Below are positions 9,296 to 34,477 of a DNA stretch of 64,000 nt, one piece after another. The stretch comes from Halobaculum sp. MBLA0143 (GTDB lineage: Archaea; Halobacteriota; Halobacteria; Halobacteriales; Haloferacaceae): positions 2,480,001 through 2,544,000 of the forward strand of contig NZ_JBGKAC010000001.1 in NCBI RefSeq assembly GCF_041361465.1, given 5' to 3'. The position numbers and the translations under genes were made by a program. Each line of letters opens with the position of its first letter. Positions within the stretch are counted from its first letter, which is position 1. The notes below the pieces were generated by a model. It was not told where the DNA came from. It searched no databases and saw only the letters and a program-made list of their open reading frames with translations.

Positions 9296-10267
9296 TTACG
9301 GACGGAAGTTCTCGATCTTGTAGACGACGCCTTCTCCGCGTCCGCAGACGAACATTGCGTCGTTGTCCGGCCCACATCGGACGCAGGTGGGCAGCGTAAA
9401 CCCGTTAGCGACCCGTGGTGTGAACCGATACTGTTGGCTGTCGTGTGGATCGATCGCTGCGACGCTTCCCTTGAACGGCTCTGCGACGTAGACGAGTCCA
9501 TCCTTCCGGTTGTAGACGGAGCCACCGACTCGCCCAAGCCCTTCTGCTACGAGCCTGTCGTCGTTGACGTGATCGATATGTGTCACCGTCTCCGACTCCG
9601 GGTCCATGTCGGCACGAGCGACGTGCCCCAGCGGACCGACGCTGTACAGCAGCGCCTCCCCGGCAGGCGTGACCCACTCGCCACAGTCGATCTGGTACGG
9701 TTCCCAGTTGTCCGGCCAAGCGCGCCGAGGAGTCATGCCGGGGAACTTGTCGCGTACTGGGATCTGATCGACAATTGTCGGGTGGTCATCTGCGTCGTCT
9801 CCGCTAGTCACGTCGATGACGCGGCTACTCCGGCCTTCGCCGGGGTTCACTGTAGTGTACACCGCGTCCGTGGCGTCGTGGTAGACGATACTGTAGGGAC
9901 CGGCGAGTTCAGATGCGAACACCGTCTCGTTGTCCACTGAGGAGAACTCGCCGCCGCCGGTGATGTCGCGGATTCGTCCTTCCCAGCACTCGTTGGCGAG
10001 GATCCGACCGTCGGGCAGCATCGCCATGCTGGACGGTCCTTCGAGTCCAGAGGCGAACACCCGCTCGTCGTCCGCAGTGAGGCCGCCGAAGTCTCCCCCG
10101 TCGGTCACATCAACGATGCGACCATTCGTGCGTTCGGTTGCCAGGAGGCGCCCGTCATGTGTCCACTCCATGTGCGAGGGATTGCTCAGATTGGTAGCAT
10201 GGAGTGTCACGTCAACCTCTCGTTGCTTGGTCTGCACCATCTCGTCTGTTGCTGTCCCAGTTGACAT
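9296..10267 (-). CDS. Beta-propeller protein (NHL/SMP-30-like)
   Basis: A 323-residue protein built of repeated four-strand blades, visible as MEWTHDGRLLATERTNGRIVD, SSMAMLPDGRILANE and SIVYHDATDAVYTT, plus later copies such as GGSVYNRKDGLVYVAEP and CVRCGPDNDAMFVCG. The spacing of Pro/Asp-Gly-Arg turns suggests six or seven blades of the NHL/SMP-30 type. There is no signal peptide or obvious active site, so it could be a hydrolase, a binding scaffold or a dead relative. A TATA-like TATAAAAATA (10290-10299) lies about 27 bases before the ATG, indicating a leaderless transcript. Confidence 0.72.
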   Translation of the reverse strand: MSTGTATDEMVQTKQREVDVTLHATNLSNPSHMEWTHDGRLLATERTNGRIVDVTDGGDFGGLTADDERVFASGLEGPSSMAMLPDGRILANECWEGRIRDITGGGEFSSVDNETVFASELAGPYSIVYHDATDAVYTTVNPGEGRSSRVIDVTSGDDADDHPTIVDQIPVRDKFPGMTPRRAWPDNWEPYQIDCGEWVTPAGEALLYSVGPLGHVARADMDPESETVTHIDHVNDDRLVAEGLGRVGGSVYNRKDGLVYVAEPFKGSVAAIDPHDSQQYRFTPRVANGFTLPTCVRCGPDNDAMFVCGRGEGVVYKIENFRP

Positions 10268-10378
10268 AGCGCAACCAACTTTTGTTCAGCTATAAAAATA
10301 AGTTTCTAAATATCCCCTACACTACTCTGGGCGTACAATACATCAGAGGTAACATTGCTCTCGCTGATAAAGGCAAGT

Positions 10379-11584
10379 ATGTTGCCGAAGGACAGTCTGC
10401 CACCGCGGCCAATTTTCAAGTATTACATATACGTCGCAACCGCGTGGGGCGGCTTCCACGTCCCAGTAAACGTGCTCATGTTCCGATCCCGGGGCTTGAG
10501 CTTCACCGAAATTGGGCTCGTAGTGGCCGCTGGAAGCGCCGTGACCCTCCTCGCGGAGATTCCAAGCGGTTACGCCGCCGACAGGCTCGGACGGCGAAAC
10601 AGTCTTTTGTTGTCGGCGGGACTAATGACATCTGGATCACTCGTCTTTGCTCTCGCTGGAACGTTTCCAGCGTTCGTTCTCGCACAGGCGACATTCGTCC
10701 TCGGAATCTCGTTTCGGTCGGGAACGTCCGGCGCGTGGTTGTACGACACGCTCTCGGAGATGGATCGTGAAGACGACTACGCACACGTCTCTGGTCGAGG
10801 GCAGACGGCACTCCTGGTGGTGATGGGCGTGACTTCCGTCGCCGGCGGCTATCTTGGTCAAATCGACTACGGACTCGCCTACCTTGCAACTGCTGCAACG
10901 ACAGCGATTAGCTTCCTCGCCGCGCTGACGTTCCGCGAACCGTCACCGACGGATGACGACAACGACAACCTCGACATAGAGACGATTCGATCGGTCATTA
11001 CCGAAGAGCTAACCCAGCCACGCCTCCGTGACGCGGTGATCGGGTTGGCACTGTTCTTCGGAGTTGCAACGACAGCGAACAGCGTGCTGGTACAGCCACT
11101 GAGTGTCGGTGCTGGCGTTCCGGAGGCACAGATTGGGTGGCTGTACGCGACGTTCACCGGTGTCGGTGCAGCAGTTAGCTACGTGACTGGCTGGGTTGAG
11201 GAGCAGCTTGGGACAGAACACACGCTGGTCGTGGCACCGTTCCTCGTCGCGGTCGCGTTGGGTGCCGGCGGCGTAGTCACGCTGGCCGTCGTCCCGGGGT
11301 TCGTGGTCATGCGTGGTCTCCAACGGCTGGTGAAGCCGCTGTCTGGACAGTTGATCAACGACGAACTCTCGTCGGTCGGGCGGGCGACCGCGCTGAGCGT
11401 CATCGCATTAGTGTACTCGGTCGTCGGAATCCCACTCCGCGTTGCAGTTGGACGAGCGACCGACGTGTTCGCGTCCGAGACCATTCTGTTCGGTCTGGCT
11501 GGACTCCTGATTGTTGCTGGCGCGTATCTCGGTGTCAGAATGTCGACTACACGGGGCGATCCACAAGCACAACCGTCCGACTGA
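10379..11584 (+). CDS. MFS efflux-type transporter
   Basis: A membrane protein of about 400 residues with twelve predicted hydrophobic helices. The cytoplasmic loop between TM2 and TM3, SGYAADRLGRRNSL, is the MFS signature GxxxDRxGRR. The central loop (PTDDDNDNLDIETI) is acidic as expected for a halophile. The protein resembles the drug/metabolite efflux branch of MFS; substrate unknown. The ATG at 10379 is chosen over a TTG at 10355 because the alignment-like start MLPKDSLPPRP precedes TM1 directly. Base composition here is visibly less GC-rich than in the flanking housekeeping genes, which may mean the 9.3-11.6 kb stretch was acquired. Confidence 0.87.
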   Translation: MLPKDSLPPRPIFKYYIYVATAWGGFHVPVNVLMFRSRGLSFTEIGLVVAAGSAVTLLAEIPSGYAADRLGRRNSLLLSAGLMTSGSLVFALAGTFPAFVLAQATFVLGISFRSGTSGAWLYDTLSEMDREDDYAHVSGRGQTALLVVMGVTSVAGGYLGQIDYGLAYLATAATTAISFLAALTFREPSPTDDDNDNLDIETIRSVITEELTQPRLRDAVIGLALFFGVATTANSVLVQPLSVGAGVPEAQIGWLYATFTGVGAAVSYVTGWVEEQLGTEHTLVVAPFLVAVALGAGGVVTLAVVPGFVVMRGLQRLVKPLSGQLINDELSSVGRATALSVIALVYSVVGIPLRVAVGRATDVFASETILFGLAGLLIVAGAYLGVRMSTTRGDPQAQPSD

Positions 11585-26003: not shown

Positions 26004-27137
26004 CTACCGCAGGAACTCGATCGCCGCCCCCTGCCCGAAGCCGACGCACAGTGTCGCCAGCCCGCGGTCGTCGCCCCGCTTCTCCAGCTCGTGGAGCAGC
26101 GTCACCGGCAGGCGTGCCCCGGAGGCACCCAGCGGGTGGCCCAGCGCGATGGCGCCGCCGTTGACGTTGTACTGCGCTTCCGGAATCCCGAGTTCGCGGC
26201 GGGCGTACACACACTGTGAGGCGAACGCCTCGTTCAACTCGACGAGATCGTAGTCGTCGATCTCCGTGCCGGCCCGCTCCAACAGGCCGCGGGTCGCCGG
26301 CACCGGACCGATCCCCATCACCGTCGGGTCGACGCCGGCGACCGCGTTCGTCCCGACCTCCGCGATCACGTCCAGGCCGTGGTCCTCCGCGAACGACCGG
26401 CTCGTGACGAGAGTGCTCGCCGCGCCGTCCGTCAGCTGCGAGGAGTTGCCGGCGGTGACCGTGCCGTCGCCGGTGAACGCCGGCGACAGCTCCGACAGCG
26501 TCTCCACGTCCGTGTCCGGGCGGATCCCCTCGTCTTCCGTGACGACGCCGTCGTCCGTCTCCACCGGGACGATCTCGTCGTCGAACCGGCCCGACTCCGC
26601 CGCCTCGGCGGCGCGGTGGTGGCTCCGGACGGCGTACTCGTCTTGCGCCTCGCGGGTCACGTCGTACTCGCTGGCCACTTTCTCGGCGGTCATCCCCATC
26701 TGGAGCTGGAACACGTTGTACTGTTCGGACAGCTCCGGGTGGAGGTGTTGGTACGTGTCCTCCCCCATCGGCACGCGGGACATGTTCTCGACGCCGCCCG
26801 CGAGGATACACTCGCGGTTGCCGGCCGCGACGGCGTCGGCCGCCGAGATGATCGCCTGCATCGAGGAGGCACACCAGCGGTTGATCGTCGTCGCCGGCGT
26901 CCCCTCGCCCAGTTCCGACAGCAGCGCGATCACGCGGGCGACGTTGTTGTCCTGCTCCTCGCGCTGCTGGGCGACCCCCCACATCAGGTCGTCGACGTGG
27001 TCGCTCGTCAGCCCCGTCTCCGAGAGGGTGTGGTCGATCAGCGTGCGCGAGAGATCCTCGCTCCGCGTGTCGGCGAAGACGCCGTCTGCCTTGCCGAAGG
27101 GAGTCCGGTGCGCGGCCGCGATGACGGGTGTTGCCAT
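26004..27137 (-). CDS. Thiolase / acetyl-CoA C-acyltransferase
   Basis: A 377-residue thiolase that cleaves or forms acyl-CoA. The nucleophilic Cys89 sits in TINRWCASSMQAI, and the second catalytic residues are His334 (IALGHPLGASGAR) and Cys364 (TLCVGFGQGAA). Length and motif order match bacterial FadA-type thiolases, so fatty-acid beta-oxidation is likely; a purely biosynthetic role cannot be excluded. There is no adjacent FadB-like gene here. The start at 27137 is followed at once by TPVIAAAHRTPFGK, the family N-terminus. Confidence 0.95.
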   Translation of the reverse strand: MATPVIAAAHRTPFGKADGVFADTRSEDLSRTLIDHTLSETGLTSDHVDDLMWGVAQQREEQDNNVARVIALLSELGEGTPATTINRWCASSMQAIISAADAVAAGNRECILAGGVENMSRVPMGEDTYQHLHPELSEQYNVFQLQMGMTAEKVASEYDVTREAQDEYAVRSHHRAAEAAESGRFDDEIVPVETDDGVVTEDEGIRPDTDVETLSELSPAFTGDGTVTAGNSSQLTDGAASTLVTSRSFAEDHGLDVIAEVGTNAVAGVDPTVMGIGPVPATRGLLERAGTEIDDYDLVELNEAFASQCVYARRELGIPEAQYNVNGGAIALGHPLGASGARLPVTLLHELEKRGDDRGLATLCVGFGQGAAIEFLR

Positions 27138-27352
27138 GTGTGCGCCTGTGTGACGGACCGGTATAAAACCGCGAGAACGGACCGCGGGTTTCGGGGTGTT
27201 TCACCTGTGGTCTGGAATCGATCGTCCTCACAGAATATAATCAGTAGAGATGAATTTTCAGTATGCTATAATTCTTATATGTATATATAATTTGAGTGTC
27301 ACTTCTAATTCATTCAGAAAGAAATTTATTTGTTAGCTTCTGCTATTGGGGT

Positions 27353-28402
27353 ATGAGCGGTCAAACGTCGTCTGCGAACAGGCGAAGCGTGCTGAGAGCA
27401 GTCGGTGCAACCGGTGTCGGTCTCACCACCATCGGGGAAGCAACGGCAACTGACGATGGAGTTCGAATTGATACTATCAAACACCGTGGTGAGACACTCA
27501 AATCGAAACTCGTGCCGAAGGAGTGGTACCAGCACGAGACACGCGTTGACGCAGTCGCTGGGGCCCTCAGACAACAGTACGAAGACATCAAGACTGTCGA
27601 CGGTGTCGGGCTGACGGGGACGGATCGAACAGTCGCAGGCAAACGGGTCACTCGGCCTATAATCTACACCTCCGAATCTGCGAGTGCTGTGTCTGTGCCT
27701 TCCAAGCGAGACGGAATCTCCATCGAACAACGTGAGACACCGGATCTACGGCTGGATACGTGCTACGATCAAGATTACGACAACGTCCCCGGTGGTGTTC
27801 AGGTGGAGACCGGTGTTCCGTTCTCTGTCGCCTGTCGTGTTATCAACTCCGACGGTGAGCCCCGGCTTATGACCTGTGCGCACGGGTTCAAGCAGTGCGA
27901 GGGAAGTATCAAAGGCGATGAACTCACGCAGAGTGATCGCCTCATCGGGGGAGTCGAAGACTGGTCAGTCGGACAAGACTGGGCGACGGTCTCTCTCAGT
28001 GCATCGTCACCCATCAACGGGTTTGACCCAGGAGTTGTCGATACACAGAGAGATGTTTTGGGCTACGTAACGGAAAACGGAATTAAAGATCTGATCTCAA
28101 CTGGAGAGACTGTCTACCACCGGGGAAGAAAGACCTGTGCGCAGAGTGGACAGGTCAAGGAAACCGGATTCGTATTTTCAAATTGTGAAGGAACTCCCCA
28201 AGAAGATTACGGTAAGTACATACGTATGTCTACATACACAGAAAGTGGCGACTCCGGAGGGATTCACTATAAAAGATATAAAGTAGATGGTAAAGAGTAC
28301 GCCAGTGTCATTGCTCCACATCATGGTAGTAGTAATTACGGTTCATACGGCTGTCCAGCATACCGAATCCACAATAACCACGGGTTCGACTTTGGACAAT
28401 AG
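27353..28402 (+). CDS. Tat-exported trypsin-like serine protease
   Basis: A 349-residue secreted protein. The N-terminus has NRRSVLRAVGATGVGL, a Tat signal with Arg10-Arg11. A complete trypsin-like triad can be read: His177 in LMTCAHGF, Asp209 in VGQDWATV and Ser301 in ESGDSGGIHY (GDSGG). The residues 40-130 between signal and protease domain form a pro-region. Pairs of cysteines (137/161, 175/182, 262/278) suggest disulfides. The gene and its upstream 150 bases are much richer in A+T than the neighbours, and the codon choice differs, pointing to horizontal acquisition. AAATTTATT at 27323-27331 is the TATA candidate. It overlaps nothing and ends three bases before the next gene. Confidence 0.87.
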   Translation: MSGQTSSANRRSVLRAVGATGVGLTTIGEATATDDGVRIDTIKHRGETLKSKLVPKEWYQHETRVDAVAGALRQQYEDIKTVDGVGLTGTDRTVAGKRVTRPIIYTSESASAVSVPSKRDGISIEQRETPDLRLDTCYDQDYDNVPGGVQVETGVPFSVACRVINSDGEPRLMTCAHGFKQCEGSIKGDELTQSDRLIGGVEDWSVGQDWATVSLSASSPINGFDPGVVDTQRDVLGYVTENGIKDLISTGETVYHRGRKTCAQSGQVKETGFVFSNCEGTPQEDYGKYIRMSTYTESGDSGGIHYKRYKVDGKEYASVIAPHHGSSNYGSYGCPAYRIHNNHGFDFGQ

Positions 28403-28405
28403 ACC

Positions 28406-29128
28406 GTGACTCGCCTCTCCCGACGAAGACTGCTGACAACAGCTGCAGTCGCTCTCAGCACGGGCTGTCTGGGCCGTCTGTCTGGCGACTCCACGGCAGT
28501 GCAGCAGACCAGTTCGAGCGAACCGACAGCGACGGAGACCACGTCGGCGGACAGACCGACGAGCGAGACAGCATCACCGACACCGACACACGAGTCGACG
28601 GCTCGGACGACGCCACCCAGTGGGTCCGCGACCGAGACACCACCGACTCCCTCGGGCGAGTCGCCCACACGGACGATCGAGCGGTGTGGAGAGCTGTACG
28701 AGGCCTCGGTTCCGGTCACGGTCACCACCTCGGAGATCTTCGAACTGTCGACCACCACAGAGGTCGTACCGTACGGCGGTCAGCTGACCGTGACGTTGGA
28801 AAACACCACAGAGACCGACCAACTTAGTGGGACGAAGAGTAGGTGCGACATTCAGAAGAGAGAGAAAGGGTCGTGGGATTCGGTTCTCTACACGGACGAG
28901 TACCCGGTCTGGAGAGATATTCCGGTACGACACGCCCCCGGCGAGGGGTTCGAGTGGAACGTCGACATCGGGCCGGGAATCGACTTCGCCGACCGGATCG
29001 ACCCGTCGTTTCAGGAGTGCGAGCGCATCGAGCCGGGAACGTACCGCTTCGTCTACTGGGGGATCACCCGCCAACCACAGGGAACTAATTACGCGCTCGC
29101 CGTCCAGTTCCGTCTCGGAGAGCGCTGA
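28406..29128 (+). CDS. Tat lipoprotein with Thr/Ser-rich stalk
   Basis: A 240-residue protein from a GTG start three bases after the protease gene stops, so the two are co-transcribed. The signal LSRRRLLTTAAVALSTGC has twin arginines (6-8) and a lipobox with Cys21. Residues 30-95 are a Thr/Ser/Pro-rich stalk suited to glycosylation. The globular end (100-240) contains one Cys pair (near 95 and 143) and an Ig-like beta pattern (GGQLTVTLENTTE ... GTYRFVYWGI). It resembles haloarchaeal membrane-anchored beta-sandwich proteins; function unknown. Together with the protease it looks like a secreted protein and its anchored partner or target. Confidence 0.75.
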   Translation: MTRLSRRRLLTTAAVALSTGCLGRLSGDSTAVQQTSSSEPTATETTSADRPTSETASPTPTHESTARTTPPSGSATETPPTPSGESPTRTIERCGELYEASVPVTVTTSEIFELSTTTEVVPYGGQLTVTLENTTETDQLSGTKSRCDIQKREKGSWDSVLYTDEYPVWRDIPVRHAPGEGFEWNVDIGPGIDFADRIDPSFQECERIEPGTYRFVYWGITRQPQGTNYALAVQFRLGER

Positions 29129-29143
29129 TCCGTTCGTCGCCGC

Positions 29144-29800
29144 TCACTCACACGAGGCCGCGCTCGACGCGACCGTCTCCCGCGACAACACGGGCGAGCA
29201 GACGAGCAGCGCCCGGGCGTCGTCGTCGGTCCCTGGGTGTGGTGTGCCGGACATCCACGGCGCGAAGTCCGGCGTCTGCCGCTTCTGTTTCGTCCCCGAG
29301 CTGGCGGCGACGACGAACTCCCGGACGGCGACCGCGACACTCCACCGGCCGACACAGTGCCAGTTCCTGGCAATCTGTGCCGGGCTGGTCCGGTCGGCCC
29401 GCATCACGACCACCTGGAACGCGACGCCGTCGGGACTCGTGTAGTAGCCCCTGATCCCGTCCGTGCCGCCGAGGTACCGCCAGTCAGCCCCGTCCGTCCG
29501 GTCGCGCGTCCAGCCGTCTCCCGGCGGCGAGAGGATCGTCTCCGGAGTCAGTTCTGCCGTCTGTGTCGCGGTGTCGGACGGTGTCGCCGGCGTCGTGGTC
29601 GTCGTCGCCGCCGACGCTGTCGTCGTCGCCCCCGCCGTCTCGTTTGGTGCCGCTGCCGCCGCCGTCTCGCTCGGTGCCGCTGCCGCCGCCGTCTCGCTCG
29701 GTGCCGTCGCCCCCGCCGTCTCTCGCCTCGGGCGATCGGACAGACAGCCGGGGACAGCCAGCGACAGGATCGAACCGGAGAGGAACGCCCGTCGTTGCAT
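29144..29800 (-). CDS. Tat lipoprotein with Ala/Thr repeat stalk
   Basis: A 218-residue lipoprotein. The signal MQRRAFLSGSILSLAVPGC has twin arginines (3-4) and a lipobox at Cys19. Residues 27-85 form a low-complexity stalk with three copies of SETAAAAAP-like repeats, then TTTTTPATPSDTATQ. The C-terminal domain (90-218) has a conserved-looking WRYLGGTDGIRGYYTSPDG segment and CVGRWSVAVAVREFVVAAS. It is convergent with the previous lipoprotein, so the region carries two stalked lipoproteins of the same design. Function unknown. Confidence 0.72.
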   Translation of the reverse strand: MQRRAFLSGSILSLAVPGCLSDRPRRETAGATAPSETAAAAAPSETAAAAAPNETAGATTTASAATTTTTPATPSDTATQTAELTPETILSPPGDGWTRDRTDGADWRYLGGTDGIRGYYTSPDGVAFQVVVMRADRTSPAQIARNWHCVGRWSVAVAVREFVVAASSGTKQKRQTPDFAPWMSGTPHPGTDDDARALLVCSPVLSRETVASSAASCE

Positions 29801-29934
29801 CGCGTTCGTGTCCGACGGCTCTCCCGGTGAGTCTTGTGGCGAATCGAGCTGGCGCGCATGACTGATCTGTATCGGCCGGGCCCGTCTCTGTCGCTCCGAC
29901 GGGCTTAACAGAATCCCGCCCCAAGGCGTTGTAG

Positions 29935-34098: not shown

Positions 34099-34179
34099 TC
34101 GCCCAGGCCACTGTCGGCTGGCGGCGTTCGCCGTTGTGCGGTTCAGCTCTCTCGATCTCTCCGCTGACGACTCCCTCCC

Positions 34180-34477
34180 CAGACCACGGTCACTCCGTTC
34201 CCGGACCACGGTCACTCCGCTCCCTGCTCCGGTCACTCCGTTCCCGGACCACGGTCACTCCGCTCCCTGCTCCGGTCACTCCGCTCCCGGACCACGGTCA
34301 CTCCGCTCCCGGACCACGGTCACTCCGCTCCCGGACCACGGTCACTCCGCTCCCTGCTCCGGTCACTCCGCTCCCGGACCACGGTCACTCCGCTCCCGGA
34401 CCACGGTCACTCCGCTCCCGGACCACGGTCACTCCGCTCCCGGACCACGGTCACTCCGCTCCCGGACCACGGTCACA
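34180..34477. repeat. 22-bp tandem repeat array, about 13 copies
   Basis: The sequence repeats GGTCACTCCGCTCCC with the spacer GGACCAC, i.e. a 22-base unit (GGACCACGGTCACTCCGCTCCC less or more), in about 13 copies. A shorter variant with TGCTCC in place of GGACCAC is interspersed at three positions (near 34220, 34265, 34355). No spacers exist, so it is not a CRISPR. No gene is evident in it: the reading frames are repeats of PRSLRSRTTVTPLP, and no start or conserved domain supports translation. It lies between a small membrane gene and the palindromic repeat before tRNA-Arg. Confidence 0.9.

What the first reader, a model, noticed from the sequence alone, without database searches (positions are those of the whole stretch)
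27190..29128. AT-rich secreted trypsin-like protease paired with a stalked Tat lipoprotein
The protease (full triad His177/Asp209/Ser301, three cysteine pairs) and its upstream DNA are much more AT-rich than surroundings, and a stalked lipoprotein starts three bases later. The pair looks imported and may form a secreted effector, such as a halocin-like or predatory protease with an anchored inhibitor or immunity partner. Function is inferred only from architecture.
Basis: partly seen in the sequence, partly recalled or inferred. Interest (0 to 1): 0.5.

Follow-up and report, generated by a model that had tools for sequence, protein, structure and literature searches.

The report
Secreted archaeal protease with surface-anchored partner
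A salt-loving archaeon carries a recently acquired two-gene cassette for a secreted digestive-type protease and a lipoprotein held on the cell surface; related proteases often sit next to a membrane-held partner, which suggests, without proving it, an enzyme weapon with a matching surface guard.

Summary
A 349-aa Tat-exported serine protease (27353-28402, His177/Asp209/Ser301) is followed after 3 bases by a Tat lipoprotein with a 70-residue S/T/P/E-rich stalk. The protease has the lowest third-position GC in the window (about 0.52; median 0.86). A same-genus genome is colinear but lacks exactly 27202 to about 29138, so both genes entered, or were lost, as one unit. The catalytic domain is a distant relative of streptogrisin B (profile E 8.7e-10) and aligns from its mature N-terminus, behind a pro-region. 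The family recurs across haloarchaea. Of 39 AT-rich members, 30 have a small anchored neighbour (lipoprotein or multi-pass membrane protein) against 52 of 189 control genes, and partner class follows the protease tree (5 changes; shuffled mean 12.6). One partner family (TM-A) lies within 4 kb of such a protease in 11 of 11 matches. The window's own lipoprotein family is common without the protease (97 of 167 genomes against 33). Best reading: a secreted protease effector with a surface-anchored neutraliser or immunity protein; inferred, untested. Halocin membership could not be tested.

The parts
27202..29138 (.). segment absent from the colinear site of a same-genus genome (thiolase and the next lipoprotein are contiguous there); right edge approximate
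27225..27352 (+). very AT-rich upstream DNA (GC 0.28); TTTATT lies 25-30 bases before the ATG, compatible with a leaderless haloarchaeal promoter (inference)
27353..28402 (+). secreted S1-type serine protease, 349 aa, triad His177/Asp209/Ser301
27353..27457 (+). Tat-type signal peptide (RR at residues 10-11); end approximate
   Evidence: NCBIfam TAT model E 0.2, below its cut-off
27458..27784 (+). pro-region, residues 36 to about 144
   Evidence: the streptogrisin match starts behind it; conserved Trp58 in 64 of 64
27785..28399 (+). streptogrisin-like catalytic domain
   Evidence: Pfam Trypsin_2 E 0.0011, below the gathering score
28406..28468 (+). Tat lipoprotein signal with lipobox, Cys21
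28469..28678 (+). S/T/P/E-rich stalk, residues 22-91, 67% S+T+P+E
28679..29125 (+). Ig-like domain (Pfam Big_14 match at residues 113-188, E 1.9e-5, 25.0 bits against a cut-off of 27)

Best explanation
The two genes form a horizontally acquired cassette. The first makes a Tat-exported streptogrisin-like pro-protease, which loses its pro-region outside the cell and cleaves surface proteins of neighbouring cells. The second makes a lipid-anchored Ig-like protein on a long stalk, which meets the enzyme at the producer's own surface and neutralises it (immunity or inhibitor). Shown here: architecture, intact and conserved triad, insertion as a unit, recurrent pairing of the family with anchored partners of several unrelated families, and one partner family found only beside these proteases and in tandem arrays. 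Inferred: export, processing, proteolytic activity, an antagonistic role, and neutralisation by the partner.
For: Triad 64, 63 and 64 of 64. Profile of 18 members against PDB chains: streptogrisin B E 8.7e-10, aligned from chain residue 1. Clean alternative site in G001, and a shorter one in G002. 30 of 39 AT-rich members have a small anchored neighbour, 28 of 39 within 300 bp, against 52 of 189 control genes; over all 63 members 36, p 3e-5. Partner class (17 lipoprotein, 20 multi-pass) needs 5 changes on the protease tree, shuffles 12.6 on average, minimum 6 in 500. TM-A partners: 3 of 167 genomes, 11 of 11 matches within 3.7 kb of a protease, four tandem diverged copies at one locus, as immunity arrays look. 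Four of five loci with a split protease keep an intact anchored neighbour. Precedent for a protease toxin whose immunity protein is a lipoprotein in some species and membrane-helix-anchored in others: Tpe/Tpi, PMC6899460 (passages). Precedent for protease-dependent antagonism in haloarchaea: PMC12893001 (abstract, introduction and passages).
Against: The window's lipoprotein family is widespread without a protease: 97 of 167 genomes, and 4 of its 8 best matches are not near one. LipoB likewise, 91 of 167. 9 of 39 AT-rich members have no anchored neighbour by my criteria, and GC-like members only 6 of 24. The AT-rich control set is tiny, 3 of 8, p 0.04. No similarity of the lipoprotein to any known protease inhibitor. 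Partner families are unrelated to one another, so no common inhibition mechanism is shown. Three of the five split proteases come from one 81%-complete draft genome (G066; completeness). No activity data.
Confidence: 0.4

Rival explanations
1. The protease is an ordinary secreted nutritional or envelope-remodelling enzyme, and the anchored partner is a surface receptor, tether, substrate or sensor that keeps the enzyme or its products near the cell, with no antagonism.
For: Anchored partners of many kinds could equally retain an enzyme at the surface. ArsR-like regulators with membrane helices lie at a few loci.
Against: Patchy distribution (33 of 167 genomes), AT-rich acquired genes, multi-copy lineage expansions with tandem partner arrays and split copies are less typical of a housekeeping enzyme.
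Confidence: 0.25
2. The lipoprotein is an independent passenger; the pair is together by chance in an acquired AT-rich stretch.
For: Its family is common without the protease. It is much less AT-rich than the protease (GC3 0.739 against about 0.52). Neighbours inside AT-rich islands may generally be membrane proteins (3 of 8 controls).
Against: Both lie inside one segment absent from the G001 site. Same-family lipoproteins sit beside distant proteases in L054 and its copies, L056 and L128, and a signal-less relative in L069. In the window's clade 9 of 9 proteases have a lipoprotein partner.
Confidence: 0.2
3. The partner is a dedicated foldase, secretion helper or activator of the protease, like the membrane-anchored lipase foldase Lif (recalled from memory).
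For: Same-strand partners directly downstream with short gaps, 15 of 39.
Against: The protease carries its own pro-region. Partners are structurally unrelated by sequence and on the opposite strand in 14 of 39. An intact partner stays when the protease is split, in 4 of 5 loci.
Confidence: 0.12

Closest known systems
Streptogrisin B and alpha-lytic protease (S1 serine proteases of Streptomyces and Lysobacter)
   Same: catalytic triad, GDSGG motif, catalytic domain alignable from the mature N-terminus, pro-region in front
   Different: Archaeal, Tat-type signal, below Pfam trypsin cut-offs; own pro-region; paired with an anchored partner
Tpe/Tpi (VgrG2b C-terminal domain and PA0261), T6SS metallopeptidase effector and immunity family; PMC6899460, passages read
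   Same: envelope-acting protease; immunity protein exposed outside the cytoplasm, lipoprotein in some hosts and membrane-anchored in others
   Different: zinc metallopeptidase delivered by T6SS; here a serine protease with its own export signal and several unrelated partner families; toxicity unproven
Halolysin HlyR4 of Haloferax mediterranei; PMC12893001, abstract, introduction and passages read
   Same: secreted haloarchaeal serine protease involved in antagonism
   Different: subtilisin family (title of a cited reference); acts by activating a precursor protein; no anchored partner described in what I read
Halocin H4 (HFX_5264); PMC6759562, passages and one methods section read
   Same: Secreted haloarchaeal protein of similar size; the size is recalled
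   Different: sequence relation untested; halH4 was not in any collection I could reach

Membership tests
S1 serine proteases, streptogrisin-like | His/Asp/Ser triad in order with GDSGG | tested here: met
   64, 63 and 64 of 64 rows; GDSGG at 299-303
S1 serine proteases, streptogrisin-like | homologous catalytic domain | tested here: met
   profile A1 against PDB: streptogrisin B E 8.7e-10; the single sequence found nothing of the family
S1 serine proteases, streptogrisin-like | Pfam trypsin gathering score | tested here: not met
   window: Trypsin_2 20.2 bits, cut-off 27.6; 7 of 18 members match Trypsin_2 at E 0.01
S1 serine proteases, streptogrisin-like | proteolytic activity and pro-region removal | not testable with these tools
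   needs expression
Predicted fold of either protein | confident structure model | tested here: inconclusive
   single-sequence models only, mean pLDDT 29.9 and 34.0; no fold search was made
Pfam Big_14 (Ig-like) lipoprotein domain | profile match over the cut-off | tested here: inconclusive
   window 25.0 bits, cut-off 27; 9 of 11 family members match at E 0.1, best 1.3e-7
BsuPI-type proteinase inhibitors (recalled) | match to the inhibitor family | tested here: not met
   no such match for any of 11 members at E 0.1; no inhibitor chain among the 12 weak PDB matches at E 10
Effector-immunity pairs (Tpe/Tpi-like) | gene adjacency that recurs | tested here: met
   30 of 39 against 52 of 189 controls
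Effector-immunity pairs (Tpe/Tpi-like) | partner restricted to effector loci | tested here: inconclusive
   TM-A 11 of 11; LipoA 97 of 167 and LipoB 91 of 167 genomes, mostly elsewhere
Effector-immunity pairs (Tpe/Tpi-like) | toxicity and its neutralisation by the partner | not testable with these tools
   needs growth assays
Halocins | antimicrobial activity against haloarchaea | not testable with these tools
   needs an inhibition assay
Halocin H4 family | sequence relation to HFX_5264 | not tested

The most novel reading that the evidence does not exclude
Haloarchaea carry a widespread, horizontally moving class of polymorphic protease weapons: a conserved secreted streptogrisin-like protease paired with swappable surface-anchored immunity proteins (at least five recurrent families, lipoproteins or multi-pass membrane proteins), with immunity arrays in some genomes. 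The window pair is the lipoprotein type.
Probability: 0.33. Interest if true: 0.8.

Novelty: new variant of a known kind. Interest (0 to 1): 0.52.

Why it matters
Few archaeal weapons are known, and fewer come with an identified self-protection partner. If the partner neutralises the protease, haloarchaea would have a simple two-gene protease effector system, testable in genetically tractable strains, and some of the many uncharacterised haloarchaeal lipoproteins and small membrane proteins would gain a function.

Tried and rejected
Base composition alone as proof of import: replaced by the site comparison. No terminal repeats or target duplication: repeats inside 27100-29250 are short and not at the junctions; no mobile-element gene was seen between the junctions. 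Pfam trypsin search of the own genome found three other genes and not this one. Common ancestry of the two main lipoprotein partner types (A2 against A4): only the signal peptide aligned. Defence (PADLOC) and phage (PHROGs) libraries: nothing significant. Viral contigs: no match. A literature search for the pairing listed no paper on it; most subscription papers are not held, among them the 2019 survey of archaeal toxins that I looked for.

The AT-rich class (GC more than 0.06 below the locus mean) was set after seeing the loci. Neighbour calls come from a crude ORF picker of mine. The 63 proteases are the strongest hits, not all hits: alone lists 179 of 391 genomes with a match. Eight near-identical full-length copies (over 80%) and shorter or weaker ORFs were dropped from 81. 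The window row is not among the 63, but is in the 64 rows. Partner labels were set by hand from the neighbourhoods for 37 of 64 rows, and a few partners (L054, L072, L111) are one gene away.

Full report
The finding is real. The window lies in a 3.58 Mb genome whose relatives are haloarchaea. At 27353-28402 a 349-aa protein starts with an RR-type Tat signal and carries His177, Asp209 and Ser301. Three bases after its stop, a 240-aa protein begins with a Tat lipobox signal, then a 70-residue stalk that is 67% S/T/P/E, then an Ig-like domain. The protease and the 128 bases before it are strongly AT-rich; the lipoprotein is only mildly so.

Insertion as a unit. In same-genus genome G001 the DNA is colinear up to 27201 and resumes at about 29139, inside the neighbouring locus that encodes another lipoprotein; the reported pair is missing. 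In G002 everything from 27204 to 29893 is missing. In G007, G063 and G060 the two flanking genes (thiolase and AAA ATPase) are 115-183 bp apart, from the coordinates. G004, G005 and G061 have longer gaps (about 1.6-2.9 kb), whose content I did not resolve. The simplest reading is gain of both genes together in the window's lineage; loss elsewhere is not formally excluded.

What the protease is. One sequence alone finds no relative in the PDB and is below the Pfam cut-off. A profile of 18 relatives matches streptogrisin B at E 8.7e-10, from the first residue of the mature chain. So residues 36 to about 144 are a pro-region and the rest is an S1 catalytic domain. Ser and His are kept in 64 of 64 and Asp in 63 of 64 family members.

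How widespread it is. At E 1e-3, 179 of 391 genomes of the class match the profile; this includes a distant GC-rich group. At E 1e-6, 33 of 167 genomes of the window's family match. The own genome has six intact strong copies plus broken or distant ones. An almost identical cassette occurs in G084 (Halobacterium sp. DL1 by its plasmid), G023, G132 and G237, and the protease alone beside a transposase in halophilic archaeon DL31, a sign of recent transfer.

The partner. I examined 76 loci. After dropping near-identical copies, 63 full-length proteases remained. Of 39 AT-rich ones, 30 have a small lipoprotein or multi-pass membrane protein next door, 28 within 300 bp; of 24 GC-like ones, 6. Of 189 control genes in the same loci, 52 do. 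Over all 63 it is 36 (p 3e-5). Only 8 AT-rich control genes were available, 3 of them with such a neighbour, so composition is not fully excluded as a confounder. 15 partners are directly downstream on the same strand, 14 on the opposite strand. On the protease tree, lipoprotein and multi-pass partners need 5 changes; 500 shuffles gave 6 or more, mean 12.6. The window's clade of nine (support 86, not starred) is lipoprotein-paired in all nine, although those lipoproteins fall into several families.

Partner families (47 proteins): LipoA (window, L054, L056, L069, L128; the L069 member lacks a signal), LipoB (7), LipoC (3), TM-A (8 proteins at 5 loci), TM-B (6), two pairs and 14 singletons. Genome-wide specificity differs. 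TM-A occurs in 3 of 167 genomes, and 11 of 11 matches lie 23-3687 bp from a protease; one locus has four tandem diverged copies, 26-45% identical. TM-B occurs in 46 of 167 genomes; its best two matches are beside proteases and I did not measure the rest. LipoA occurs in 97 of 167 and LipoB in 91 of 167 genomes, mostly away from proteases. TM-A was built from protease neighbours, but the search itself was genome-wide.

Broken copies. Five loci have the protease split into separate ORFs (L056, L058, L059, L068, L121); four keep an intact anchored ORF beside it. Three of the five are from one draft genome, so sequencing error may contribute.

Mechanism. A secreted, self-processing protease would be dangerous at its producer's surface. 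A stalked lipid-anchored protein made from the same cassette is well placed to bind it there. The variety of anchored partners, the tandem arrays and the retention of partners beside split proteases fit neutralisation better than help in folding. The nearest described parallel is the Tpe/Tpi family, in which the immunity protein of an envelope-acting protease is a lipoprotein in some species and membrane-helix-anchored in others (PMC6899460, passages). Protease-dependent antagonism between haloarchaea is on record, by a different route (PMC12893001). Export, activity, toxicity and neutralisation are all untested here.

Caution on lipoproteins. In haloarchaea 78-87% of putative lipoproteins use the Tat pathway (PMC2945643, passages), so a Tat lipoprotein as such is ordinary; in my control genes 4.3% of 347 looked like one.

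Verdict. The pairing is well supported for the family, moderately for this pair; the immunity role is a reasoned guess.

Noticed in passing
window 29144-29800 (-): Another Tat lipoprotein with a repetitive A/P/S/E/T stalk; G001 has a 212-aa lipoprotein at the same place, so it is older than the inserted pair. No Pfam match.
   Followed up: partly
window 34170-34476: Tandem array of a 22-bp unit, about 14 copies.
   Followed up: no
L060:6394-11456: In the window's own genome, a protease paralogue is followed by four tandem diverged multi-pass membrane proteins.
   Followed up: yes
L054, L055, L107, L108, L075: A protease more than 80% identical in genomes of at least two families, and on a plasmid of halophilic archaeon DL31 beside an IS66 transposase: recent spread.
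   Followed up: partly
L054:7851-8639, L115:4543-5145, L126:4727-5356: ArsR-like regulators fused to membrane helices next to some proteases.
   Followed up: no
window 9296-11584: A second low-GC patch: an MFS transporter (10355-11584, GC3 0.673) and a gene with a glucose/sorbosone dehydrogenase match.
   Followed up: partly
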